Shown here in pieces: positions 6,794 through 61,300 of a stretch of 64,000 nt of DNA. The notes beneath the pieces were generated by a model. That model saw only the letters and a list, made by a program, of their open reading frames with translations, made no database searches and was not told the DNA's origin. Location of the stretch: NCBI RefSeq assembly GCF_000002985.6, contig NC_003280.10, forward strand, positions 9,730,501 through 9,794,500, read 5' to 3'. The position numbers were made by a program, and so were the translations under genes. The stretch comes from Caenorhabditis elegans. Taxonomy: Eukaryota; Nematoda; Chromadorea; Rhabditida; Rhabditidae. The first letter of the stretch is position 1. Each line of letters opens with the position of its first letter.

Positions 6794-7517
6794 GATCTAT
6801 AATTTTGACCAATTATTGATTTTTAGAAAAATTGTATGTTTCCCTTCTTTGCTTAATTTTCCACACAATCTCTTTTTATCTTTGGTTTCAAACTCAATGA
6901 TTTTTTCATATTTTCTTGAATTTTCACTTTTTACCAATTTTGTTATATTTTCTAATTTTTTCATTCATTTTTCACCAAGTGAACCAACCAATTTACCGAT
7001 TTTTTTCTCGTCTTCAAGACCGCTTGTGTTATTCCAAAAATCCCCATTTTTTTTAAATTCAAATAATCTTTTCGTCTCTCACCAAACCACATACTATCTT
7101 TCTATGTCTCTTCGCCACCTAATCATGTCATCAATTTCTTCGAAAATTCCCAAATTTCACCGATATTCTTCCGTTTGCATCGATTTCCCACTGTCCCCGC
7201 CCAAATTGAGCTGAGCTCCGCCCACACTTTCCCAGGATTACTGTATTGTTTCTCGCTCTGCGTCTCTCATTCTCGTTCCCTCTCTCTTTGTTTTATCTCG
7301 GAAAATAGGATCAAATCCTAAACAGTTAACCGGTCCGTTTTAGACACCCCCGGTGGTAATAATTTTGAAAAAAAGTGAAATCATGTTTTTTAATGTTTTG
7401 GTTTTAAAAAACCAAACATTTTTTGGAGAGAAAAATGTATAGAACTTCCAAACATACAAACACACGACGCATCGAGTCTAATAATTATTGATTTATTTTT
7501 ATTATTTTTGATTTTTC

Positions 7518-15567: not shown

Positions 15568-16233
15568 TTCACCTTAAAATGTTTTAGTAACGCAGTTATT
15601 TGAGGGATCAAGAGTTAAAAATAAGAATAACATAATTTAAACTGTAAAGGTTGATGAAAAGAATAGAAAATAGGTGAAATTTACTTAAAATCTATCAAAT
15701 GATCTAAAAAAACGACTCCGTAAATCGACACTAATGCCGAAACAAGTGTCACCGTACTTATTCGCTGCGAGACCCACTTCCCGTTTAATTCTACGCGCCT
15801 TTAAGTGCCCACCCATTTCGGCATTTTATCGATGAATTTATTAGCGTTCGCCGACGCTTTTTATAGATTTCTAACCTTTTTGTTCTCTTATTACCTTGCC
15901 GCCTTCAAATAAGAGTTATCTTAAACTAGTAACATTATCATTTTGCAATATAAACTCTGGAAAAATATGCAATTATTACATTTCTACACACAAAGTGTTC
16001 CGAGTATGTTTTTTTCTGTTATTTCCACTCAACTGAGAACTAAAAACTAGTTTTACCAAAATCACATGTTCCTTTTTCAATTTCTCATTTTCTTTGATAC
16101 TCTTTGCCAATTGAGCTCCTTATTTTTGAAAACATAGATTCCGATAAAATTTTGCTGATTCTCTTTTTCTAAACATATTGCATATTTTAAAACACTTCGA
16201 TAGTCAACATTTACAGTCAACGTTCACTTGGTA
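15568..16233. promoter_or_regulatory. shared promoter region, UTP13-like gene (-) and nos-3 (+)
   Basis: About 670 bp between divergent starts. A degenerate copy of the dispersed repeat (GAGACC ... GCGCCTTTAA) is visible near 15750-15812. A splice acceptor (TTTACAG) lies at about 16210-16216, just before the nos-3 ATG. No clear TATA box seen. Confidence 0.5.
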
Positions 16234-19200
16234 ATGTCTGGACAGCAGTTCCAGCAACATTCACAGCAGCAACAACAACGTGCCCCAACCGTCTATAATA
16301 ATAACAACAAGAAAAACGGCGGCAGCGCTGCAAACTCAAACCAAAACAACAACAACCCCCATCATACCTCAACGACTGATTCGGTGCCGAACTCGACTGC
16401 CAACGTGTCGTCAGCAATTTCGTTTGAGTATTCAGAGCCGCCAGGAAACACCACTAGGACAACACCAGATTCTGGGCTAGGGACTGACGACCAAAAGGGC
16501 ACACCTCAACAGACACGTGCTCCGCCAGGATTTGTAAGTAGGAAACTATTGAAAATCCTATCGAAAAAAGATAAGTCAGAAAAAGAACACTTTTGAGGTG
16601 CGCAAGGTTTTAAGAGAATTGAGAGATTTTTCAAATCAGTGAAATATCAAACATGTAATTTATCTCATTCATTTTCAGCATCGAGCAGCTTATCATCGGA
16701 ACAGCGGTCAACAGCAATTCTCTCAAATGCGCCCACAGCCGCCACATACTGGACCACCAAATGGTATGACATATTACGGAGGAACCGTCGGCGCGCCCGG
16801 CTATCAGCAACAACAACCACCACCACAAGAAGGATATGATCAACAGCAGCAGTTTGGAGGTGGATCCGATGGTGGACAATACCAAAGAGGACCACCAGGA
16901 GGCTATCGGGTATGGAGAATTACGGGCTCCTCAATTATTTCTAGCTCATAATAATTTTTTAATGAGCGTTATGATTTGGAAATTATATCTACAGGAAAAT
17001 AATGAGAAGAGTTGATAGACATTTTGCAAATTCTTTATTTTCAGCAGTATCAACAAATGGAAAGCGGTGGTCCGCCAAGTGGATACGCGGATGACAACAA
17101 CGGTGGAAACAATAATTTTGTCATTCATGGCCCCAACGATAATTTCGATGGTCGGCCACAATATAGTTGGTGCAAACTTACTGTGTTCTGTTCAAAAGCA
17201 TAATTTTAGATCCTCAAGCAGGGCCACCACCACAAAATCAGCAGCAAATGATGAACAGTGGCAACTATGAAATTGATCAGTACCGTGGACAAGGACCTCC
17301 TCCAGGAAATACCTATCAACAGCAGGGACATAGTGGACAAGCTCAATATTATGCTGGACCAGTAATCCAGCAACGGCCACCACCGCCACACAATGCTCAA
17401 TCTTATGGACAGTATAGGGGTCCACAAGGCCCGCAAGGCCAAATTATTCAAATGATGCCTCACAATCCACAGAATCAACAGCAGCAGCAACAACATCCAA
17501 TGCTGTATCCAATGGTGTATGTTCCTGTGCCAGCACCACGAGTGTTCCGGCAAGAGCCAGCTGGTGGAGCTAGCAGTTTGGAAAAAGACGGAGGAAATGC
17601 TCGCAAAAGTAAACGAAACAGTCAAAATGAGGACGATGGTCAGCAACATCAACATCAGAATGAACAACAACCTCAACAAGGCTACCATCAACAGGATTTT
17701 GTATCGAACCCACTCTGGAATCAGATGCCTGTCGGTTACGCTCCACCAGGAAACTTCACGCAGCCTCAGCAACAACATCAACAAATGGATCAACAACAAG
17801 CCGTCCAAATGCAACATCAGATGCAGGTACAACTTTAAAAAAATTAGGGGAAGATTTTATATTATATTTTGACAATTTCACAGAGTTACACTTTTTTTAA
17901 AAAGAACAAACAACAATTCCTCAGATGTTTCAGCAAATGCAACCATACGGAATGCCACAAGGAGGCCCACCACCACCTCATGCTGCTGCTTCTATGATGA
18001 ATCATCCCCATCAGCAAAATCATCCTCATATGAATGCACAAATGACCCAACAACAGCATCCAGGACAATATCTACCGCAACAATATATGCAAATGGTTCC
18101 GCCGCCTCACCATCAAATGCAACAAATGCAACAGCAAGGTAGACGTCCAGGAGGTGTTGAGCCGCTCATGGGAGGCCCGCCGTATCAAATGAGTGGACAA
18201 ATTAATCAAATGGGAGGACCAATACGTGGAGGTTTTGGAATGCAACAGCAACAGCCGATGGGCTACTTCAATTCTGGAAGAGGTGGAAATGCTGGATCAG
18301 GAAGAGGAAGAGGTGGTTCACGAGGTCACGGATACCAACATTCTCGTCAAAATTCTAATCAAAGCTACAATTCTTCTCAAAGTTATCCACAAAATCGAGG
18401 AAATTTTGATTCATCAAGTCAATATCAATCCGACAGTCAACAAGTGGATGAATCAGTTACACAGCTTACCAATAGAATTGAACATCTTCAACCAGTTAGC
18501 TCACGTGCAGGATCACCAAGTAAACAGATCCTTCAGTTAGTCGAATCGAAAGATGATCAAACTTCGACTGAAAATTCTGAATCACCAAGTCGGTCAAGCA
18601 CTCCTAAACATCGGAAGAAGACCCCAAAGAAAGATTTTAAAGTTGATCAAGAAGCATCTATCGAAGCGACAAAAACTGAAATAAGCGAGGAAAATCCGAA
18701 AACGGATGATATTCAGTCTAAAGATGATGTTACTTCGAAATCTGAACTACACTGTTATCGATGTGAACATTACCAGTTGCCTGCTGAAGAAGTGTCTTCC
18801 CATAAGTAAGATTAAAAATTCTAATTTATAAAAATTAAAAATTTAATTTCAGTATTCGCAAGGATAATGGTGATTTGTGGTGTGAGCATATGAAAAAGAT
18901 CAAATGCGGGCATTGTGAGGCGACTGGAGAACAAGGTCATCACCCTCTAATTTGTCCAAAAAAGAAAGAAGAAGAACGTGTGGCAAAATCTCGAGAGTCT
19001 TCGCAGAAGCCGATCGATCCGCAGGAAATAAGTGATGATCAGGATGATACTGTACCGGATGTTCCCGATCAAATAGTCGAACAAGACAATCAGTCACATA
19101 AATCTCGTCACAATTCAGAAAATCGCAGTGGCGGTAGAGGATACGGTCAGAACTATAGCCATAGTTATGGCGGAAATTCTACTGGTAGCTATCGTGGACG

Positions 19201-19370
19201 ATCGTCTGGAGGAAGTGGAGGCAGTGGACGTGGTGGTGGTCGTGGAGGTTACTCACGTGGACATGGTGGAGGATCAGGAGGAGGACAACGTGGAAACTAT
19301 CAGGTTTGTATTTTAATAAATTGAAAAAAAAAACTAATTCCCATCAAGTTTCCAGAATAAACGTAAGTAA
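16234..19370 (+). CDS. nos-3: NOS-3, Nanos-family RNA-binding translational regulator
   Basis: Exons 16234-16533, 16679-16909, 17045-17165, 17210-17826, 17925-18805, 18853-19303 and 19356-19370 give 871 codons. The N-terminal two thirds are low-complexity, rich in Gln, Pro, Gly, Asn and Met. The Nanos zinc finger spans the exon 5-6 junction, with ligands in CYRC, then H, then CEH and CGHCEATGEQGHHPLICP, the two CCHC-like fingers of the family. An RGG/Gly-Ser-rich tail and NKRK end the protein. Nanos proteins act with Pumilio/FBF proteins on target mRNAs; NOS-3 acts in the sperm-to-oocyte switch and germ-line development. Intron 3 (17166-17209) is only 44 nt with a weak donor (A|GTTGGT). The exon 3 acceptor is a tandem TTTTCAGCAG, so one glutamine may be optional. 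Confidence 0.95.
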
Positions 19371-20010: not shown

Positions 20011-21804
20011 TCATCCACTCCATCCACTTCGCCTTCTCCGTTTTTTAGCGATGCCACCGATTTCCTTGGCCCATTTGAGGATTTTGTGTTCACGCGCCAA
20101 CGCTTTCAGCTTCTGATGATGTGACGAAGATTCTGCAGACGTGGCAAAGTGTTCGTGGTAAGGCAGCAATGGAATTGGAACACTGAAATCCACTTTTATT
20201 AATATTTTTCATCACCAAGACGTGAAGTTTTTCAATTTTTGTGCAAAAAATACAGCACCAGGTCTCGTCACGACAATTGTTTGTAAAATACATGCGGGTG
20301 GGCGCCTTTAAAGGTTACTGTATTCTCAAAACTTCGGTACTGTGAAATTTTAATTGTTTTCCAACAGTTTTTCTTACGATTTGCTAAAATTTACTTATTC
20401 TATTTTAGTGTTTAATAATAAATAAATAAGTTTTAAATAAAAAACTAGGAAAAATCGATGAAAACTCCGCGCAGCAACTAAAGTTTGAAACTACAGTAAC
20501 CTTTAAAGACGCACACATGTTTGTATTTCACAAAGAAAAAGCGTGTTGAGACCGAGTACCGTAGTTTTGGAGCGGAAATCGCAAAAACTCGCGTATGGGT
20601 AGTAATTTCCTTTTTTCTTAATTTTTAAAATCATCTCCAATTTTAAACTCACCCATTATCGTCTATAAAAGCATGGTGTTGACGTGTTTTTATCGGTTGG
20701 CCCCGGAATGAGCCAATAAAATGAGCCTGAAATTTTCAAAAATTTAACTGAAAATCTTAGTCAAAAACTAACCGATCTCATTCCAACGTCGGCGTCGGAA
20801 GTTCGAAAATCGGGAATACTCGTTCGAATATCTTTTCCATTTACTCTATCAAGTAGACTGAATGAGCATATTTCTGAAATGAAACGTTTTTTGTAATGAA
20901 AACTTTATTTTCACTCTTCAATTTAATTATTTTAAAAGTAATTTTTATTCAAACTTTACAGGAGACCGAACCTGCGGAAATTCTCGAAATATCTCAAAAA
21001 GTCTAAGTTTTTTTTATTGAAAAACTTGGCAGTTCACCAATTTTTTCTGGAAAATGTGGTTTTTAGGTTTTCTTAACATCTAAGGAAATACATTTGTAGC
21101 TCAAACAAATCGAAAATCGAATTTTGTTTGATTTTTGATCCGAACAATTTTTTCTCCCGACTCGGAAAGTGCGATATTCATTCTGATATCATATTATCTA
21201 ATTTGTTCTCTAATAACTTGTTTTCATAACATTTTAATACTCGTTTTAGAGGTCACGTTTACTATCAATGAACCACTAAAAAGTCAAATTAAGTCAACTA
21301 CTTGCCAGACGCGGCGAGAAGTGGAAGGTACCGTACTCTTTAAAGGCGTATACTCCTTATTACTGTATTTATTTACTAAACATTGAATCGTATCGAGACC
21401 GGGTACCGTAGCCTTGAGATATAAATTGCTAAATTTTGTAAAAGATACGTGCATCTTTAAATTGGAATAGTGATATACTTTCTGTTTTGTATAGCGTATG
21501 TTTTCTAACAGACATGCGCCCGACTACTTTACTTCGAAAACTTATATCTTGGTTCATTTTGAAGATAACAATGAATATTTAACTACAAAACTATAGAAAA
21601 AGAAATAATAAATATTTTGTCAGTTGAAAATTTTTTAATAAAACAAACGACATCTGAGATATAAACTGACAAAGTTGAACAATTAGGTGCAAAATAAGGC
21701 AAAAGCTTTTGAGTTTTCATTTGATGATATTAACTGATGCTTATCTCACCTGGTACGAAAGAATACAATACGACGAAAATATTTAGTGTTGACAGGGGTC
21801 GCAT
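20011..21804 (-). CDS. small secreted protein, basic C-terminus, function unknown
   Basis: Four exons (21750-21804, 20773-20873, 20653-20726, 20011-20182) splice in phase to 133 codons. Exon 1 encodes a signal peptide (MRPLSTLNIFVVLYSFVPEI). The mature part has AHFIGSFRGQPIKTR and PIPLLPYHEHFATS, then a Lys/Arg-rich end (AKKRRRRSGWSG) that could be a furin-type site releasing a short tail. Apart from one Cys near the signal-peptide boundary there are no cysteines. Every junction has good donor and acceptor bases. A TATATAAATAG box lies 100 bp upstream of the ATG. Intron 1 (876 bp) and intron 3 (470 bp) hold three dispersed repeats. No family recognised. A peptide precursor is possible but unproven. 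Confidence 0.75.
20244..20325 (-). repeat. dispersed repeat copy
   Basis: Reverse orientation: GGTCTCGTCACGAC then GGCGCCTTTAAAGGTTACTG. In intron 3 of the small secreted gene, facing the copy at 20493-20575 in inverted orientation. Confidence 0.65.
20493..20575 (+). repeat. dispersed repeat copy
   Basis: CTACAGTAACCTTTAAAG then GTTGAGACCGAGTACCGTAG; same family as 7861-7930, in the same intron as the previous copy. Confidence 0.65.
21327..21414 (+). repeat. dispersed repeat copy
   Basis: GTACCGTACTCTTTAAAGGC then TCGAGACCGGGTACCGTAG. It lies in intron 1 of the small secreted gene and has the longest spacer of the set. Confidence 0.65.
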
Positions 21805-21903
21805 TTCTGTTTGAATTCTGCAAAATCGAAAATATTGTGGAAATAAAAAAATAAACATTCGCAAAAAATAATCACATCAACGAATATAGTAGCGTCTTCC
21901 ATT

Positions 21904-21914
21904 CTATTTATATA
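21904..21914 (-). promoter_or_regulatory. TATA box of the small secreted gene
   Basis: Minus strand TATATAAATAG, 100 bp upstream of the ATG at 21804. It is the same form of box seen before two of the P450 genes. Confidence 0.6.
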
Positions 21915-22086
21915 CCACTACTGACCCCCAGACCATTTTCTATAAGAGATCACATATGATAGAGAGACGCAGAGAAGTAGGAGTGAAAGATTTATAGAAA
22001 TTTGATAAGGGGAACGAAAAGACACGAGGTTTTTAACGATGAGATCGTGCAGAATCAAACGGAATCAGTTTTATGAAAATTGTGAG

Positions 22087-22598
22087 ATATAAAGTTGAAA
22101 GAATTTTTTAAAATAAAATGATTTGTCACCTTAAAAGTTGACATCATATTTTTATTATTTAATCTTTAAAAGGTAAAAGTAGACATTCTTGAAGTCGGAG
22201 AGGAATCTATAGACTACAAACTAAACAACATACCGTATCTAGTTTCTTATTATTGCATTGGTATTTAGATGTTTTCGTATAATCCAACTAGATAAAACCC
22301 TTTGAACCTAAAAATCAAACCGCTCAAAAACCGTATCATCAATTCAAAGAGTCGTTTCTCTCAGACTCTATTTTTAGGTTCAAAGGGTTTTATCTAGTTG
22401 GATTATACGAAAACATCTAAATACCAATGCAATAATAAGAAACTAGATACGGTATGTTGTTTAGTTTGTAGTCTATAGATTCCTCTCCGACTTCAAGAAT
22501 GTCTACTTTTACCTTTTAAAGATTAAATAATAAAAATATGATGTCAACTTTTAAGGTGACAAATCATTTTATTTTAAAAAATTCTTTCAACTTTATAT
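22087..22598. repeat. perfect inverted repeat, two 229-bp arms with 54-bp loop
   Basis: Left arm 22087-22315 and right arm 22370-22598 are reverse complements over their full length as far as I can read, with no mismatch. Outer ends are ATATAAAG / CTTTATAT and inner ends CCTAAAAAT / ATTTTTAGG. The loop is unrelated sequence. No protein-coding capacity and no obvious target-site duplication. It could be a recent fold-back element or an inverted duplication, able to form long dsRNA if transcribed. Confidence 0.9.
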
Positions 22599-23529
22599 GA
22601 ACTAAAGACGATGTTTGATTTTCGGAAATTAGTTTTCTTTATTATGAAAAACAAAAAAAGATATAAAATAACGGACTACATACCACATGGTGACCATATT
22701 TCAACGTTCGAAAGATGAAAAGAGTGTAATAAAATTTGGCGCAAAAAATGAAAAAAGGAGAAGAGTATATCTTTGTTGATCACGTTTTTGGTTGATGATA
22801 AGAACTATTTGATACGGAAATGAAGATATTCTGTAGGAATTTGGTATGGGGTTTTATTTTTTTGAATAGAACGGAAAAATGGAAAACTTCATATTAGGAA
22901 TAGTGGTTCAGAGCACAGTGATTACACAGAGCTGGCTCAAATATTTCAAAATGTAAATCTTACTCAAAAATATCATTTTCGGTTTGTGGATGCTTTAAAC
23001 TAGTGCTTAAATTTTTATGATAAGTCCTGGCTTTCTCTGATCTTAGCTCTTTAGAATTTGGGAGCTTATGAACTTCGTTTTCAATTGAAAGAGCCTGTAA
23101 AAATTGGTATCTGTAACAATCAATATAACTGAGATCGTGGCAAGACATATTTGTGCCGTTAAACTGACACTTCAAATGACAATACCACAGTTTTGCCAAA
23201 GTTTGAAACCAGCAATACAACAAGTGTCTAACAATCTGAAATTCTAATAAACATGTCGAGTTTTTTTTTGAAAAATAATTTCATGCACTTTTTTAGAATT
23301 AAAATTTTGAAAATACTCACACAAATCAACAAACCGAAAAATAAATATTAGGATTCATATTCTTTATGCCAGTTTTTGTTTCCACTTGAAATCCTTTCTT
23401 TCATGCATCAAAACGTTCAATGACCATTGTTCGAAATTTCAAGTGTTTTTGGTTCAAAAAAGTAAAAATTAAAAGCAAAGCAAAAAGCAAAAAAAATATA
23501 CGTTCATTCAATCAGTTTTACATTTTCAG

Positions 23530-24423
23530 ATGCAGTTCTCACTTTCATACCTGATCTCTATTTTCTACATAATATTGATAACTTCTGAAACTACAGCGTT
23601 CTCACCTAAAAGGCCTAACCTATACATTTGGCTAGCACAGAATAGTTATATTTGTGAGTTTTTTTGATTTCAGGTTTTTGAATTCCATAAAATTCCATAT
23701 TCGAATAGCAGAACATTTATATGTGCGTAATTTTTTTTTCAAAGTTTTGATTTTTGAAAGTATATGGAATTTTTGAAATGTGCATATATATTTTTGGAGC
23801 CCAATTTTTTTTGGATTACATATTCGCGAAATTATTCTAGTTGCCAACTTTAAACTTCTATATGAGATTTTTTAAATATGAGTTTAAATGATTTACAAAT
23901 GTACGTTCTTCAGGTGATCCGACTCTGCTCAACAAGCGAACTCATCGATTTCTGACACCTTGGGAATCTGTCAGATTACGGTGTTCATGTGGTGATCCAT
24001 TGGCGACCAAATCAGCGTGTGGCAGGAAACATGGAAATTCAAACCAGAAGCTTGCTTGTTTTCGATGTAAGCACTCACGTTTTGTGATCACAAATATAAA
24101 ATGTATATGTTTTAGTACCTGATCCATGTCTACGCGAGTATGCAGTGATTTTCGAGCATGGCGGTAATCGATTATCTGGTATCTGAACCTCCTCGCTCCA
24201 ATGAAGTATAAATCCAAATTTCAGTGCCTCTGCCACCCTCAAAACCTCATCGAATTGTAACAGCCGTACGAAAGACAGTGACAACGTGAGAACGAACAAA
24301 GTTTTTTGTTTTAAGATAAAAAACACGATTTCTAGGAAACATTCTCAAAGAACTCCAAAAATAGTGTCTACGATTCCAGTCGGGGCTGTCTTGCGAGTGA
24401 AGAAAGTGAAAGAAAAATTATAA
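23530..24423 (+). CDS. small secreted six-cysteine protein, function unknown
   Basis: Exons 23530-23653, 23914-24066, 24116-24178, 24225-24285 and 24336-24423 give 162 codons in phase. The N-terminus is a clear signal peptide (MQFSLSYLISIFYIILITS). The mature protein has six cysteines, several in RLRCSCGDPLATKSACGRKH, and a Pro/Lys-rich C-terminus (VKKVKEKL). The ATG follows directly on TTTTCAG, leaving no leader beyond a spliced leader if trans-spliced. AATAAA lies 21 bp past the stop. Three disulphides are plausible. No known family recognised. Confidence 0.85.
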
Positions 24424-35300: not shown

Positions 35301-37487
35301 AAATAATTTTCCAGGTACCCAAACTCGTTGCTAGGTGATCGGAATAAACGGCAACACTTTTTCGTGTCGGATACTAACGAATTTTTCTTTGATCGGCACA
35401 GGACCACGTAAGTTTTTTAGTTGCAATTTTTAGAGATCATACAATAATGCCAAAATGTTCTGCATTTAAAAATAATACCTTGAAATTGGAAATCGAGAAT
35501 TTTGAATCAGTGGAAAACTATTATTATCCAATGTTATTTAAATTAATTTTTAAAGAAGTTCCTCGTTCACCTTCGAGATTCGAAATTATCTGTGAGCCAA
35601 AAATGCTAATATTTCAAATATTTTACCTTTTAAACTATAACAAAATTTTATTCCCAGTATTATGGTGTTTTTCTCGCTTTTGTTTGGCTTTTTCTTGTCA
35701 ATATCCTATTGTCATACATAACTGGAAAAGCGCCGTCTAATATTGAAAATGTCCTACCTAGCTTTTAAAATCTAGCGGCTATGAATATTTTTTTACTATT
35801 TACCTTATTTGCAAAAACATTCGCATTTTGGAAGAACCAAGCTACTTTCAGTTTTGAATCAATTCTCTACATATATCAAAGTGGCGGAAGAGTGAAACGA
35901 CCTGAAATTGTGCCGATTGACATATTTTTGAAAGAAATGCGATTTTTCCAAGTAAGTTCTTTTTTCAAAAATCTATATACTATGACTTGGTTTTCCATCT
36001 ACCTGACTTTAGGTTGGCGTAGATTGCCTCAAAGACAAGTAGGCCTGCATTTTTAAATCTACATGAAATCCCTAATATCACCGCAAAGCTTAATGTATTT
36101 TTACAGATGGGTGATGATCTTCTGGAAGAATTCTGGATAGCTGAGGGTTATGAAAAACCAAAAGAAGTGATGATGCCAAATAATAAAACCCAAAGAAAAA
36201 TATGGGAACTAATGGAATATCCGGATAGTTCACTTTCCGCGAGAATTATTGCATTCATTTCAATTGCTGTTATTGCATTGTACGTTTTTTTTCAGAAACT
36301 GAAATTCACATATTAATTATGATCTTTAGATCCATCATCTCATTCTGCTGGGAAACAGTACCATCTGACATCGAAGAAAAACCAATCAATAATTCAGCAA
36401 CTGCGGAACTATTGGATGAAATGGACGAAAAACATTATTCCCCATTTTTCTGGATTGAGCTCATGTGTATTTTGTGGTTTACTATTGGTAAGTTGTCATT
36501 TTAGATCTGAAAAATATAAATAAATTTTCAGAATTAATTCTTCGGTTTATTTCATGTCCTTGTAAAGTGACATTTGCCACGTCTGTGTTGAATATTATTG
36601 ACTTTGTGGCAATTGCTCCGTTTTTTGTTAACTTTTTCTTGTAAGTAACCTGTAAAAGTTGAAGCTCTTAATATGTTAAATTTCAGCGCGGACACAAGCA
36701 AATCCAATTCATCGATGTCGTTTGCAGTGCTCCGTGTGCTCCGATTGGTTCGAGTATTCAGAGTTTTCAAACTTAGTCGGTATGTTTTGATTTGGCACAA
36801 ATGATAAAACTCTAAATATATTTTCAGACATTCCGTTGGTCTTCAAATTCTTGGAAAAACTTTCCGATCCTCTGTCCAAGAGTTTTGTCTTCTCATTTTC
36901 TTCATGGCAATTGCTCTGGTTCTCTTTGCATCAGGAATGTATTTTGCGGAGCAAGGGGAGCCAAACTCAAAGTTCACTTCAATTCCAGCAAGCTTCTGGT
37001 TTGTACTGGTAAGTGATAAAAACGCTTTGACTTGAATCTTTAGAAAATATTAATTTCAAAAAGGAAACAATTTAAAATTTCTAAATTTTCCAGGTCACAA
37101 TGACAACAGTCGGGTGAGTAGAAAATCTGATAAATGTTGTTTTTTGTGAAATTGTTTACGTGGTTTCTTGTGATTGTGATTTTTTGATATTGAAACCGGA
37201 CTGAAATAATTCAATTTTTTCAGATATGGAGATTTGGTTCCGCTGAGTCCATTTGGAAAAGTTGTGGGCGGTATGTGCGCAATGATTGGTGTCTTGACAT
37301 TGGCACTTCCAGTTCCTATTATTGTAGGTTTTTATTTTTCTCAGTCGCTTTTTATTCTGAAAAACATAACTCTTCGAATTAACATTCAAACTTTCAGGTT
37401 GCAAATTTCAAACACTTCTACCGACAAGAAAACCGTCTTGCCTCGATGAAATCAAAGGGTGACGATGCAGACGACGACATCGCATGA
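26306..37487 (+). CDS. shk-1: SHK-1, Shaker-type voltage-gated potassium channel
   Basis: Common exons: 34929-35045, 35187-35270, 35315-35407, 35852-35951, 36107-36279, 36330-36487, 36532-36640, 36687-36779, 36828-37008, 37094-37113, 37224-37323, 37398-37487. From the internal ATG at 34939 this is 435 codons. Order: T1 tetramerisation domain (about 39-135, with [11 protein letters not shown] and YPNSLLGD), S1 to S3, S4 with regularly spaced Arg ([17 protein letters not shown]), pore signature TTVGYGD near 369-375, and S6 with the PVP kink ([11 protein letters not shown]). It is a tetrameric plasma-membrane delayed-rectifier-type channel of nerve and muscle. The C-terminus is short and acidic (DDADDDIA). 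Upstream lie a cassette exon (31451-31579) and five candidate first exons, described separately; all are phase-compatible. The 20-nt exon 37094-37113 codes part of the selectivity filter. Confidence 0.95.
27754..27878 (+). other. shk-1: shk-1 alternative first coding exon B
   Basis: Follows acceptor TAGCAG at 27731-27736. Open frame from [23 protein letters not shown] to [12 protein letters not shown], ending in phase 2 before GTAATC. A GC-rich block about 200 bp upstream (27480-27532, GGTG|GTGAGC donor) may be its untranslated leader. Confidence 0.6.
28351..28400. repeat. CCTAC/GTAGG-rich dispersed segment
   Basis: GCCTACACCT and AAGTAGGCCATG form a loose inverted pair. Part of a set also seen at 29375-29513, 30591-30650, 36009-36050, 39197-39230 and 44534-44575. 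Confidence 0.5.
29375..29513. repeat. CCTACC/GGTAGG inverted segment
   Basis: CCTACCTACCTATTTTGG and CAGGTAGGTAGGCGTAGG face each other. It is the largest of the CCTACC segments in the window and lies in a shk-1 intron. Confidence 0.6.
29792..29799. promoter_or_regulatory. CRE palindrome in shk-1 intron
   Basis: TGACGTCA, the full CREB/ATF palindrome, about 590 bp before candidate first exon C of shk-1. Confidence 0.4.
30379..30398 (+). other. shk-1: shk-1 alternative first coding exon C
   Basis: ATG with IDSLI then AG|GTAAG, phase 2. A second upstream ATG (30357) in the same exon would end in phase 0 and not fit. The short length makes this the least certain of the set. Confidence 0.4.
30591..30650. 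repeat. CCTAC/GTAGG-rich dispersed segment
   Basis: GCTAGGTAGGTGCGCCTT, then GGCCTACCAAAGTGCCTACT; same set as 29375-29513. Confidence 0.5.
31451..31579 (+). other. shk-1: shk-1 cassette exon D
   Basis: Acceptor ATTTTTAG and donor GG|GTTGG. It codes [20 protein letters not shown] and on to SHSADF. It begins with one base and ends with two, so it fits between any phase-2 first exon and the common exon at 34929. Confidence 0.65.
32855..32880 (+). other. shk-1: shk-1 alternative first coding exon E
   Basis: ATG followed by WRFNRIK and AG|GTATG, phase 2, able to join directly to the common exon at 34929. It is similar to exon A in length and pattern (Met-aromatic-Arg-Phe-x-Arg). Confidence 0.55.
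34507..34568 (+). other. shk-1: shk-1 alternative first coding exon F
   Basis: ATG then [19 protein letters not shown] and AA|GTGAG, phase 2. A hydrophobic head followed by basic residues recalls an inactivation-ball peptide. That reading is an inference. Confidence 0.65.
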
Positions 37488-40459: not shown

Positions 40460-43377
40460 TTAGTGATCTGCTCCAACAGCGTGACTAATTCGTTTGAAGC
40501 ATGACGATTGACTGGATGGCGACTTTCCACGTTGGAATCGGCCACGAGCTTCTTCTTCAATCAACTGAAAATAGTTAATTACAGATATTTGATAAAAAAC
40601 TAAGGACGGTCTAGATTATGTTGCTAGGAACATATGTATTAAAAATATACGTAGAGAACAATTACAGTTTAGCACAAATTACCTTTCTTGTCTCAGATGT
40701 CAAATAGGCTGGTGACTTATCGTGTGGCACAGGCCCTCTGGAAATTGACATAAGATAAATATTAACTTTTTTAAAGAAAAAAAAAACAAGGTTGACTGAT
40801 AAACCCACTCAGGCACCGCTCCAGTTTGTTGGTAGAGTTGCTCGGCGGTGGCTTCAGAGGAATAAAGATTCATTGGCGAGTTGTATTGCAAATGGTGAAC
40901 CGCCGCACCGGGTGACAGCTCATTTCGGCTACGTCCTGATGGAGAATGGTAAAAGACTTTCGATGGAGAAAGTCCGCATTGAGCTCCGTAAGCTCCGTTG
41001 GCTCCTGGAGCTGGAGAGGTGTTGATGAATGTCATCTGGTTCAATGGTGTTCCTCCGGATCCCGCACCGTATGGTTGAGACGTGGCGCCATTGTTGTAAC
41101 TAGAAAGTTCTTGATTTTAAACGAATGATAATCTTATCCACCTACCTATAAGAAGTTGGTGGTGCTTGAGCAGGAATGGCACTTCCATTGGAATGTCCCT
41201 TGAATCCACCGGATCCTCCATATCCACCAGATGATGCTCCAAATCCAGTTGGAACAGAGTTGTAATTCGATGAATTATTTGGATTATAATTTGCACTTCC
41301 CGGCAGGATAGTGTTATCTGTTGACTTTTTGATGTTATTGTAAGATGAGTTCGAGGTGGTGAATGGTGGAGCTGGAGAATGACGGATTGGGATGTTGTGG
41401 TGGGATGATGGAGAGAAGCCGCCGCTACCGTAGTTTCCAGATGATTGGTGGGAGGACGAGTGGAATGTTGAGCTGAAAAGTGAGAATTCTTTTTGAATAT
41501 GTTTTGATCCGAAATATCTGGAACAAGTCATTTCATTGGTTGAAATTCAACAATCCAAATCAATCCAAAGCTATTCATTCATTATTCAAACAATCAATTA
41601 TTACATACACTATACAAACTATACTACAATTCATCAATCAAACAATTAAAATCACGTATTCATGTTAAAGAAATTAGTATCTATGCGGAAATTAAAACAA
41701 TTTAAAACCCAACGGCGTCCTCCCACCTTTGATGGTTACTGCTGCTTGTGTTTGTGTTTGTGATATTACGTTGATTGACTCCAGAGCCGGTGCCAAAGTG
41801 AGAACCAAAGTTGTTCTGAAAAAAAAACAGTGGCATCTAGGATTTTATGGATTTGGTATTTTTCAAGCTGTGGGTTTCATTTTTCAACGTGTTCTATTGT
41901 CATTTTGCGAACAAAATAATCTTCTGGAAAATTACTATAGTTTTTTGAAAATAAAGTATTATAAACTGGCAAAATACGTTCAAAATATAAGATAAGAAGA
42001 TATCTAGTAATCGGATGAACGAATGACCGTAAAAATTTGATAATATCCATACTTAACCCATTTTCTCTAACTTACTTGATTTTGGTTAAAGGAAGAATTT
42101 ACAAAGTTTGATGATCCGAATCCTGATCCAAATCCAGTTCCGAATCCTGGCTTCATCTCCTCCACAACCATTTTGTTGTCTTTCTCATTCAGAGTCCATG
42201 GAAGAGTTGTGTGAGAAGTGACGAACCTATAATATAATTTGTGAATGTTTTTGGATATCTTTTTAAAAGAGTAAAGACTTTTTGAAAGTGAAAAGGGTCT
42301 TTAAGGCTAAAAGTAGATTAAACATTAAATAATATACGTTTAAAATAGCCTCAAAAAATTTACCTTTGAAGAGAAAGTCGGACCTCGTTGAAAGAGTCAT
42401 CAATTAGTCGATTAGCTGAAGCTGCATCCAATCCACGTGTTGATCGCCCATTGATCTTTAAATTGCCACTTTTAATATCTTCAAACTACTGTGGAACTAT
42501 AGTACCTGATCAACTTTGTCATTGTGTTTTACTCCGGCTTTGTCTGATAGGGATTCGGCTTCAACCTGAAATTCAAAGCTAACGTCAATATTTATGTCTG
42601 AAGCTCCACCCAAAAATCAATCAGTATGATTATATTCAACGCTGTCTTAATAAAAGTTCCGTAACCAATAATCTTTGCTCATCTCTTATCTTATCATCTC
42701 TTTAACGTCTTGGTCCATCCGTTCATCAATCGACAGAACAGGTGCGTGGGAGGAAAACTACTGAGAAATAGTGCAGAAATAGAGAAAATGAAGTGATTTG
42801 GAGGTTGGTGTATTTTTTAAATGAATGATGGGTCTCGCCACGAACAATAAGGTTTTGGTGCTATTACGTAGAAGTCTAAAGATGAGCATATTCGCCATAT
42901 CTTACTCCCAAAGGTCTCGCCACGCGGGCAACGAATTACTGTAACTCGTGCCGATTAACGAGCAGCTATTTTTCAACTGAAATGTTTGACTAGCTGAAGA
43001 AATTAAATAAAGTGAAAAGTCCTTGAACCGTCGTCAAACACTACTTTCACACAAAATCAAAAAGTTTAGACAATGGGGTACTCCGTTTCGCTGTCCTACT
43101 TTTCTCTCACAGCAATGCATTTCTGTATACACGCGATAGCAGTTGCCACCGCCGCCCGGTTAGCTCAGTCTACCGACTGCACCAGACTCTTAATCTGGTT
43201 GTCGTGGGTTCGAGTCCCGCATTGGGCTTAGTTTTTTGTTTTTTTAGGCAAAAAATTATAGTTTTTAGAACTTGCCCGATCAATAATTAATCCATCAGCT
43301 TGTTGTCGAACAGAGAACCCCCAGCGGATATTTCTGTCAGATCGGTTCATCCGAACCGAAATCGTTTCGTACGTCAT
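40460..43377 (-). CDS. PDZ-domain protein with Gly/Ser/Asn-rich linker, PDLIM/ZASP-like
   Basis: Exons 43276-43377, 42506-42565, 42364-42455, 42076-42226, 41727-41815, 41146-41472, 40809-41099, 40683-40737 and 40460-40564 give 423 codons. The N-terminal PDZ domain (about residues 1-95) shows the carboxylate loop region NIRWGFSVRQQADG, then AGVKHNDKVDQINGRS and LIDDSFNEVRLSLQRF. The middle is low-complexity with GFGTGFGSGFGS. The C-terminus has AVPEGPVPHDKSPAYLTSET and KLIEEEARGRF. This layout recalls ALP/Enigma/ZASP proteins at actin or Z-disc sites, but no LIM domain follows, so function is inferred. Intron 1 starts with GC (CGG|GCAAGT) instead of GT and contains a tRNA-like gene on the other strand. 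The penultimate-exon junction uses donor GA|GTGGGT, chosen to keep phase. Confidence 0.88.
43154..43228 (+). tRNA. tRNA-Lys (anticodon CTT), altered D arm; possible pseudogene
   Basis: The acceptor stem GCCCGGT / ATTGGGC, anticodon stem CCAGA / TCTGG with loop CTCTTAA, and T arm GTGGG-TTCGAGT-CCCGC all pair. A T6 terminator follows. The D arm does not: GCTC is followed by AGTCTACCGACT instead of the usual GGTAGAGC part, so box A is damaged and an alternative AGTC/GACT stem forms. It lies inside intron 1 of the PDZ gene on the opposite strand. Confidence 0.7.
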
Positions 43378-44329
43378 TCTGAGGTGGCTGAAATTTAATG
43401 ATCTAGAATACATTTTGGAAATCAAGACACTAACAGAGACATCCTTCAAATTGAGAAATATAGAAAAATTGTGAAGTTCGATAGCGGAAAAAAGGAGAAA
43501 AAATTGGGTTTAAGTAAAACATGTGTGATTTTGTGCAGTTGGTGTGATTTATGTGTTGGAAAAATACATAAAAATAGCAATTTGATACAGATGTTTTGAT
43601 GTTTTTCATCCAAAAGTTCAGGAAGTTTGGCAGCGAAAATGCGCTGGAAAATCACATAAAGGAACCACGTGGCGATCAGAAAACTCTAATTTTGACGAAA
43701 TGCCAAAAATTTGGCACACTTTCCAATTACAATCTAAGTCTATTGAAAATTAGAGTGAAACTTGACAAAAATCTCAAAAACGACGCAAAAATGTCTTGAG
43801 CTTATCGAATGGCAAACGATACTAAGACACTTGGCAGAAGGCGGGTTATCACACGACACATGACATTTGTTGTGGAAAAAACGGAAAACTGCACAAAAAA
43901 GTTGGGGATATGCCGGAGAGATAAGGTTGAAGGTGGAGGTGTAGGAGATCTCTTCTTGTTTTTCATTTTTCCAACCTTTTTTCCGTTTTTCTTTCCGCGT
44001 CACAACAAAAAGTCTTTTTTTTTCTCTATTCCTCACCATTCCTTCGTCTCAGGACAACTTATCATCTTATTTTTAGACTCTTTCTCTAGAGAAGACTTGA
44101 GGGGATTTTTCTGTTAAGTGAGATGACGTAATTTTGAGCCAAACGTATTTAATTTATTTTCACAACTCATATTGAAACATACGATTTTCAATTGGGGAAC
44201 ATTTTGAAAATTTGAAAACTTTATAGAAACGAGAAAACAAAATAAAAATTACAAAATAGGACTGACTCAGACAAGGAGCATTGTTTTTGCAAACACGAAA
44301 TGGTTCAGAGACTCTAGGTTATCCTATCA

Positions 44330-44402
44330 TTGTCGTCCAGGCGTCGAACACGACCAGCGCAAACCGCCAGTCAACAGCGTTACCCACTGCGCCACCGAGG
44401 TC
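44330..44402 (-). pseudogene. tRNA-derived sequence with intact boxes A and B
   Basis: Minus strand: TGGCGCAGTGG matches box A and TGTTCGACGCC is close to box B, with normal tRNA spacing. The anticodon and acceptor stems do not pair, so this is a tRNA pseudogene or a SINE-like head rather than a working tRNA. Confidence 0.55.
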
Positions 44403-58397: not shown

Positions 58398-61300
58398 TTA
58401 ATCGGAATGTCTGGGCTTCAATTTTAGGTGAACATTTGTTGGCGCAGTTGTGGCGATTCCAACCAGTTTCAATGGAATATGGGTTTCAAAAGTTGTTTCC
58501 AGAGAATATTTCTTCAGAATTTGTGCCAGAAGCATCTTTTCTTCCATATAGGCCAAACGCATTCCAATGCAAATTCGGGGTCCAAGTCCGAAAGGAAGGT
58601 AAGCTCCCTTTGCAACAGCTTGTTCGTCTCCAGATTCCCATCTGAAAATGAAGAAAGTTGTGTTGCCTGATATTTCCCCTTCATCTAGCCTTCAGTTTTG
58701 ATTTTAAAAAATATGTGTCAACAATGGGCAGTCATTATGATAGGGCAAACCCTCATTTACTAGCGTGCTCATTCACTTGAACGCTCAATCCCTAACGATG
58801 GCTCATCCCTTTGACGCTCATTTACTAATGTTTTCGTCACAAAACGTCATAAAGGTTGGAGATGGCATTATTGTAGACTTCCCAACTATGCTGCTAAATC
58901 AGCATACTTGGTACATCGTTATGCTACTTACATCCATTTCTCTTTCAGTACGGAGATGTAGGGCCTCGCATGGACACACTACTTTTTTCATTGCCTACTC
59001 GTTTCAATTGTTGTTCATGGCAACCTTGAAAAAATGAAAGTATAGGGAAAGACGTTCAGCGGACCAAATAACTTCCAAAACTCGCTAAACTACGTATCTT
59101 CAAACTGACGTATCTCGAAAAATACACGTCTGGAAAACAAATGTTCAACTAACAAAATGATCAGAAATATTTTTTCTTTTTAATAAATTAATTTTTATTC
59201 CGATACGCCAACTATTTGTAGAGTTACACAGAGTCAAAGCCATTATTCCAAAAATCACGAAAACTTTTGAGAACTCTTTTGCTGTACCCGCCACAATTCA
59301 ACATCCATTGAATTTCAGAAGATAAAATTTGTTGAATTGTGAGTGAAAAATATTTCTCCATGTTTTATCAGTTTTAAGTTTTTTGATATTTTCATGTTCC
59401 GCCAAGTTATAGACCGTTTTCTGAAAAAATCCAATTTCCGCCATAAAACACTTCATATCCAACGTATCGACTTGAAATTTTGAAAAATGATCACTTTTTT
59501 GAGGTTTCTACAATGTCCTAAAAATCTTTCAAAAGTGTTGGCTCATCTACAAAATCGTCCTCCGCTCCAAAATAAGAAATGGGACTTTTGCTTTTCGAAA
59601 AATGGGCGAAAAAATTAAAATTGCGATTTTTGGGTCGAAAAATATATTTTTAGAAAGCTGAGAACACGCTATTTACGAATTTCATATTCATTTTATGTTA
59701 TTCCTTCTTTGAAATGACATAAAAATTAAACAAAAAGAACATAATTTTAATTCTCGCGTGTAATTTTTTAATTTGCATTAAAACAATTGAAACACTGAGC
59801 AAATTATCAAATAATTACACGTGAGAATTAAAAATATGTTATTTTTGTTTAATTTTTAGTTCATTTCAGAGAAGAAATCACTTAAAATGAACATGAAATT
59901 CGTAAATAACATGTTCTCAGCTTTCTAAAAATATATTTTTCGACCCAAAAATCGCAATTTGATTTTTTCGCCCATTCTTCGAAAAGCAAAAGTCCCATTT
60001 CTTATTTTGGAGAGGAGGACGATTTTTTAGATGAGCCAACATTTTTGAAAGATTTTTTAGGACATTGTAGAAACCTCAAAAAAATGATCATTTTTCAAAA
60101 TTTCAAGTCGATACGTTGGATATGAAGGGTTTTATGGCGGAAATTGGATTTTTTCAGAAAACGGTCTGTAACTTAGCTGAAAACTAAGATATCAAAAAAG
60201 TTATAGCAGGAAAATTTCAAATAAGTATTTATAAATTACAAATTTACAGGTTTTTATGTTGAAACCAAATGGGTGTTGTAGTGTGACTCTTCTTGCAAAG
60301 AAGGTTCGAATTTTTTGACAAATTTTGGTTAAATTGCTTTCCTCCCGTGTAACTCAGCGAATAATTGATAGATTAACATGAAAAGTAATGAAAAATGTAG
60401 ACAAAGCCTTTTTGATTATTTTGTTAGTTGATCATCTCTTTTCTAGACGCATAGTTTTCAGGCTACGCCAATTTGAAGATGAGGAGTTTTAAGATATTTA
60501 GCTATGCTTTTGATCCACTGACACTGCAATGTATCTTGGAACTGTTTTTCCCGGCCAATATGCCTGATTTTTGTGAATTTTATTTATTAAAGTTAAAGTT
60601 GCTTATTAAGTTTAAAGTTATTGAAAAAAAAATCAGAACCTACCTTTCAGGCTTGAACTCATTTGCATTTTCACCCCAAAATTTTGGATCATAGTGTAGA
60701 GTCCATGTATCTGCTTGAACATTTGTTCCTTCTTCGATTTTCATTCCGAGTACTGTAGTTGATTTCATGCATTTCCGATTGTGAACTCTGTATTTTGATT
60801 CATTGTACTCGTCATTGGAAAATTGGAATATGCATAGTTAGGCACTTCTCTTGACATTCCTTATCAGTATTTGATTTTCATGTGATCAGTCTTATCATTT
60901 CACCTTAATCTTCTGGGTTACACGTTCTCTACCGATGTACTGGTCACCGGCATACACATGCTGGTGATTTGGTGATATGATCACAGATTCTAGATGCACT
61001 TATTTTGGACTTTTAAGCCAGATCTGTGTGAGCGAAATGTTGTATTTTCAAAACTTTGAATGCACCATGTGCTTGGGGGAGTTAATTTTTGAAAACAATC
61101 CGAACAAAATTTAGTCATCGTCTGGAATAAATTGGAAAAAAATTTGTCAAAAAGGTACCACGGAATTGCCTAGGTGTTGCAGAATTAATACTGGTATTCG
61201 AAAATAACTTCTTACAATTAGTTAGAATATTTTTCTTTTCAAAACATTTTGACAAGTTTTTTTCTAGAGAATAGTCAACAATGGCGCAACTTGGAAACTC

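What the first reader, a model, noticed from the sequence alone, without database searches (positions are those of the whole stretch)
22087..22598. Perfect 229-bp inverted repeat in a divergent promoter region
Arms appear identical over 229 bp, far better than old repeats, with a unique 54-bp loop. It is either very recent, held identical by gene conversion, or selected as a hairpin. A transcript would be a strong Dicer or ADAR substrate next to two unknown secreted-protein genes.
Basis: seen in the sequence. Interest (0 to 1): 0.7.

Follow-up and report, generated by a model that had tools for sequence, protein, structure and literature searches.

The report
Young perfect inverted duplication, worm genome
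A 229-base stretch of worm DNA sits beside an exact mirror copy of itself and was found nowhere else in the genome; it looks like a recent local duplication by accident, and whether its hairpin RNA is ever made is unknown.

Summary
The repeat is real: arms 22087-22315 and 22370-22598 are complementary at 229 of 229 positions around a 54-base loop. The genome has the size of C. elegans N2 (recalled). Genome searches returned only the two arms themselves. In a 264 kb sample it is the only perfect one of 24 inverted repeats; I searched three of the five others with 94% identity or more, and each has copies elsewhere. Pairing stops at the arm ends (39 of 200 outer positions). At published worm mutation rates, zero differences is compatible with ages up to about 2.6 million generations (95% bound), so neither gene conversion nor selection is needed. 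I found no divergent promoter and no second secreted-protein gene. A transcript would fold almost perfectly (-365.6 kcal/mol), but no expression, small-RNA or editing data were available. Verdict: new member of a known kind, a young unique inverted duplication. Function untested.

The parts
22087..22315 (+). left arm, 229 bp, 25.3% GC, single-copy sequence
22316..22369 (.). 54-nt loop without relatives in the genome search; the fold places a 6-bp hairpin in it next to the right arm
22370..22598 (-). right arm, exact reverse complement of the left arm
21963..21973 (-). exact ESRE motif TCTGCGTCTCT, 113 bp left of the repeat; possible promoter element (inferred)
   Evidence: motif quoted in PMC7322875 (one passage)
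23530..24423 (+). right neighbour: five-exon gene model made by hand (23530-23653, 23914-24066, 24116-24178, 24225-24285, 24336-24423), 162 aa with an N-terminus that looks hydrophobic by eye; ATG directly after ACATTTTCAG, as in a trans-splice acceptor (recalled)
   Evidence: no Pfam match at E 0.1 or better
16204..19370 (+). left neighbour nos-3: open frames from about 16204 on (start not determined), Q-rich, Nanos zinc finger, last exon 19356-19370

Best explanation
A recent, local inverted duplication. During replication or break repair, a strand copied about 229 bp of AT-rich intergenic DNA and placed it in reverse orientation 54 bp away, by template switching or fold-back synthesis. The sequence shows two identical arms, abrupt ends and single-copy status. 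The copying mechanism is inferred, and which arm is the original is unknown. It is most likely neutral. If a transcript runs through it, for example a long outron of the right-hand gene, that RNA would form a 229-bp double strand open to ADR-2 editing and DCR-1 cleavage; this step is predicted from structure only.
For: Arms identical at 229 of 229 positions. No other genomic match of arm or loop. Pairing falls to chance at once outside the arms: 4 of 20, 10 of 50, 21 of 100, 39 of 200; a gapped comparison of the 300-bp outer flanks scores 16.0 against a shuffle mean of 15.7, with 88 of 200 shuffles as good. There is thus no decayed shoulder. Zero differences fits an age with median 0.6 million and 95% upper bound 2.6 million generations, using the wild-type rates of 1.84e-9 substitutions and 0.68e-9 indels per site per generation in Table 1 of PMC8727991.
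Against: No strain or species lacking one arm could be examined, so the ancestral single-arm state is not shown. The junctions give no clear mechanistic mark: read by eye, 0-1 bp of microhomology if nothing was deleted. Identity alone cannot separate 'recent' from 'recently homogenised'. Inside the loop 10 of 27 positions pair, a little above the 27% expected from composition, too few to judge.
Confidence: 0.7

Rival explanations
1. An older inverted repeat whose arms are kept identical by arm-to-arm gene conversion, as proposed by Zhao et al. 2007 for some C. elegans intergenic inverted repeats.
For: PMC1803023 (parts 1-3 of 4 of the text read) reports intergenic arms up to 100% identical whose inverted structure is conserved between species while the sequence is not. 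It adds that long high-identity repeats are recombination-prone, so that persistence would call for an explanation.
Against: In that paper the genes flanking the repeats were always paralogs, divergent or convergent; here the neighbours differ by Pfam and both read on the + strand. There is no decayed shoulder outside the arms.
Confidence: 0.12
2. A functional hairpin RNA locus: a transcript is made and processed into siRNAs or edited, with selection keeping the arms paired.
For: RNA fold -365.6 kcal/mol against a shuffle mean of -81.4. An exact ESRE motif lies 113 bp to the left, and the right gene has a trans-splice-like acceptor 931 bp downstream, so the repeat could lie in an outron. [quoted passage not shown]
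Against: No Rfam family at gathering score; the sub-threshold miRNA hits are what any perfect stem may give. The arm has no other genomic match, so no long trans target is visible; exact 20-23-mers elsewhere were not searched genome-wide. A young duplication explains the identity without selection.
Confidence: 0.1
3. A single surviving copy of a fold-back or MITE-like transposon; the palindromic ATAT (or TA) at both outer ends would be its target-site duplication.
For: Outer ends read GAG-ATATAAAG and CTTTATAT-GAAC, compatible with a TA or ATAT target site. The three sampled near-perfect repeats that I searched have copies elsewhere.
Against: No other copy of arm or loop. The terminal 24-mer with up to 3 mismatches has 9 hits besides the two arms against 6 for the reversed control. 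ATAT is its own reverse complement, so it is no evidence of a duplicated site.
Confidence: 0.07
4. An assembly or cloning artefact: one arm is false.
For: PMC1803023 states that replicons with inverted repeats over 150 bp cannot be propagated in E. coli, so clones of such DNA may be faulty.
Against: Different sequence lies directly outside the two arms and in the loop. The contig length equals that of the finished reference chromosome II (comparison recalled).
Confidence: 0.03

Closest known systems
Long nearly perfect intergenic inverted repeats of C. elegans (Zhao et al. 2007, PMC1803023)
   Same: intergenic, arms near 100% identical, short spacer
   Different: those lie between paralogous divergent or convergent genes and keep their structure across species; here the genes differ by Pfam and are co-oriented, and conservation could not be tested
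Palindromic repeat families of C. elegans (MITE-like; label recalled)
   Same: long palindromic arms around a short loop
   Different: three sampled examples have 77 (lower bound), 25 and 5 genomic matches, their own arms included; this one has only its own two arms
Inverted-repeat RNAs edited in C. elegans (PMC4282642, passages)
   Same: would form long intramolecular dsRNA if transcribed
   Different: no evidence here of a transcript or of editing

Membership tests
Recent local inverted duplication | two arms (near-)identical with abrupt ends and no relatives elsewhere | tested here: met
Recent local inverted duplication | relatives or strains with a single arm (ancestral state) | not testable with these tools
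   says this genome has no relatives held; a 30-mer of the arm gives 0 matches in genome contigs and in viral contigs, which are not collections of worm DNA
MITE / fold-back transposon family | multiple dispersed copies | tested here: not met
   2 matches, both its own arms; the same search found relatives down to 69% for the right flank, more distant ones could be missed
MITE / fold-back transposon family | target-site duplication | tested here: inconclusive
   only a self-complementary ATAT/TA at the ends
Zhao 2007 conserved inverted repeats | flanked by divergent or convergent paralogous genes | tested here: not met
   both neighbours on + strand; different by Pfam, not compared with each other directly
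Zhao 2007 conserved inverted repeats | structure conserved in C. briggsae / C. remanei | not testable with these tools
   genomes not held
Hairpin siRNA / ADAR substrate locus | long near-perfect RNA stem | tested here: met
Hairpin siRNA / ADAR substrate locus | transcribed, with siRNAs or A-to-I sites | not testable with these tools
   no expression data held

The most novel reading that the evidence does not exclude
The repeat lies in a long outron of the right-hand secreted-protein gene, transcribed from an ESRE-bearing promoter at about 21.97 kb. Each firing would then release a 229-bp dsRNA hairpin when trans-splicing removes the outron: a stress-linked, self-made dsRNA that could silence or mark its own gene.
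Probability: 0.04. Interest if true: 0.55.

Novelty: new member of a known kind. Interest (0 to 1): 0.25.

Why it matters
If young, it is a clean natural example of a fresh inverted duplication in unique sequence. Its fate across wild strains would show how such hairpins arise, mutate and meet RNAi or ADAR. It also offers a single-copy test site for whether a perfect intergenic hairpin is tolerated and silent. Without transcription it is an ordinary structural feature of one genome.

Tried and rejected
Transposon family: arm, loop, right flank and terminal 24-mer were searched in the whole genome. No family was found for arm, loop or ends. The right flank has two weak relatives elsewhere (76% and 69%, both at flank positions 405-548, outside the repeat). 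The left flank holds a dispersed repeat (window about 21476-21699): 39 other places among the 40 of 387 candidates that were scored, plus 4 weaker pieces. It ends about 390 bp before the arm.

Known RNA gene: the Rfam gathering scan of the window has 3 hits, none in the repeat. A permissive scan of 21900-22800 gives 10 hits, all below their gathering scores; I regard them as noise, nine of them from the perfect stem.

Divergent promoter: rejected on the two gene models. The codon scan is weak support: it shows nothing above its cut-off between 19,306 and 30,121 on either strand, and so also misses the right gene.

Census: the first one by BLAST mixed loops into self-palindromic alignments and was replaced by the ungapped census, which misses gapped repeats. 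Of the five other rows at 94% identity or more, I did not search two (L033:3872-4069 and window 59520-60057) for genomic copies.

Literature: ten searches, open-licence papers only. ZK1321 gene names listed 3 papers, none opened; Y53C12B listed 5 papers, of which I saw passages of two. The three passages of PMC3213143 that I saw do not name this locus. No listing or passage that I saw mentions this repeat; supplementary tables could not be read.

Full report
Observation. The arms are at 22087-22315 and 22370-22598, complementary at all 229 positions, with 54 nt between them. The arm is 25.3% GC in a 34.8% GC window. Chance is excluded (expected about 10^-121).

Where it is. The window is contig C2:9730501-9794500 of a genome of 100,286,401 bases in 7 contigs, and C2 is 15,279,421 bases. 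I recall these as the sizes of the C. elegans N2 reference and of its chromosome II. Published nos-3 primers, labelled Y53C12B (PMC12457629, one passage), fall in the left-hand gene: the first 11 of 20 bases of one primer at 16898-16908, and 18 of the 20 bases of the other at 17210-17227. The untested remainders lie across splice junctions by my reading. A Nanos zinc finger (PF05741, 43.1 bits, cut-off 27) is read there too, one of 2 places found in the genome. The gene ends with a short last exon at 19356-19370. That nos-3 is Y53C12B.3 is recalled; PMC3564989 (one passage) lists Y53C12B.3 among RNA-binding proteins without the name nos-3.

Neighbours. nos-3 runs on the + strand and stops about 2.7 kb left of the repeat. 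On the right, a hand-made + strand gene model of five exons starts at 23530, directly after ACATTTTCAG, and encodes 162 aa with a hydrophobic-looking start and no Pfam match. The arrangement is therefore tandem, not divergent, as far as these models show. An exact ESRE motif (TCTGCGTCTCT; PMC7322875, one passage) lies on the - strand at 21963-21973, one of two exact copies in the window. If it marks a promoter and if the right gene is trans-spliced, the repeat would lie in its outron; both are inferences.

Copy number. The arm has 2 matches in the genome, both its own. The loop with inner arm end, right arm and flank gives only itself and the left arm. The terminal 24-mer with up to 3 mismatches has 11 hits including the two arms, against 6 for a reversed control. 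Very distant relatives could escape the first look of that tool, although it did find relatives at 69-76% for the right flank.

Comparison set. Over 264 kb (window and 20 stretches of contig C2), 24 rows of ungapped inverted repeats reached the score cut-off, some overlapping. This one is the only one without a mismatch. Five others have at least 94% identity: two at 99.0% (103-bp arms), and 96.8% (95 bp), 95.0% (100 bp) and 94.5% (127 bp). I searched three of the five in the genome: the two at 99.0% have 77 (a lower bound: 40 of 90 candidates scored) and 25 matches, and the one at 94.5% has 5, own arms included. So, unlike these three, this repeat is made of sequence with no other copy.

Age and origin. 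Wild-type rates from Table 1 of PMC8727991 (passages and section 11 seen) give, for zero differences, a median age of 0.6 million and a 95% upper age of about 2.6 million generations. With substitutions alone the figures are 0.8 and 3.6 million. Pairing drops to chance immediately outside the arms, with 39 of 200 pairs and a local flank score typical of shuffles. I take this as the mark of one recent event rather than of a long-lived repeat under conversion, whose edges would be expected to decay gradually (inference). The alternative in print for worms is active maintenance (PMC1803023, parts 1-3 of 4 read). That paper argues that such structures are unstable, so that lasting ones need an explanation; its examples lie between paralogous divergent or convergent genes, which is not the case here.

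Function. As RNA the 512 nt fold at -365.6 kcal/mol (z -50). Worm inverted repeats are known editing targets (PMC4282642, passages). Whether this one is transcribed could not be tested. No Rfam family reaches its gathering score in the repeat.

Verdict. Observation confirmed; setting partly wrong. Most likely a young, neutral, unique inverted duplication, a new member of a known kind.

Noticed in passing
window about 21476-21699: A dispersed repeat, 76-86% identical to 39 other scored places on six contigs, ends about 390 bp left of the inverted repeat.
   Followed up: partly
window 7257-7267 and 21963-21973: Two exact ESRE motifs, with seven matches at up to one mismatch against 0.56 expected in shuffles.
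   Followed up: partly
window 59375-60203: A large imperfect inverted repeat (ungapped arms of 395 bp, 80.5% identical, 39-nt loop) among ORFs that look like cytochrome P450 by eye.
   Followed up: no
window 37219-37332: Rfam potassium channel RNA editing signal (RF00485, 56.1 bits, cut-off 51) on the + strand; by recall the worm Shaker gene shk-1 may lie here. Whether worms edit this site would be worth a look.
   Followed up: no
window 44262-44335 and 43154-43228: snoRNA ceN44 and a tRNA.
   Followed up: no
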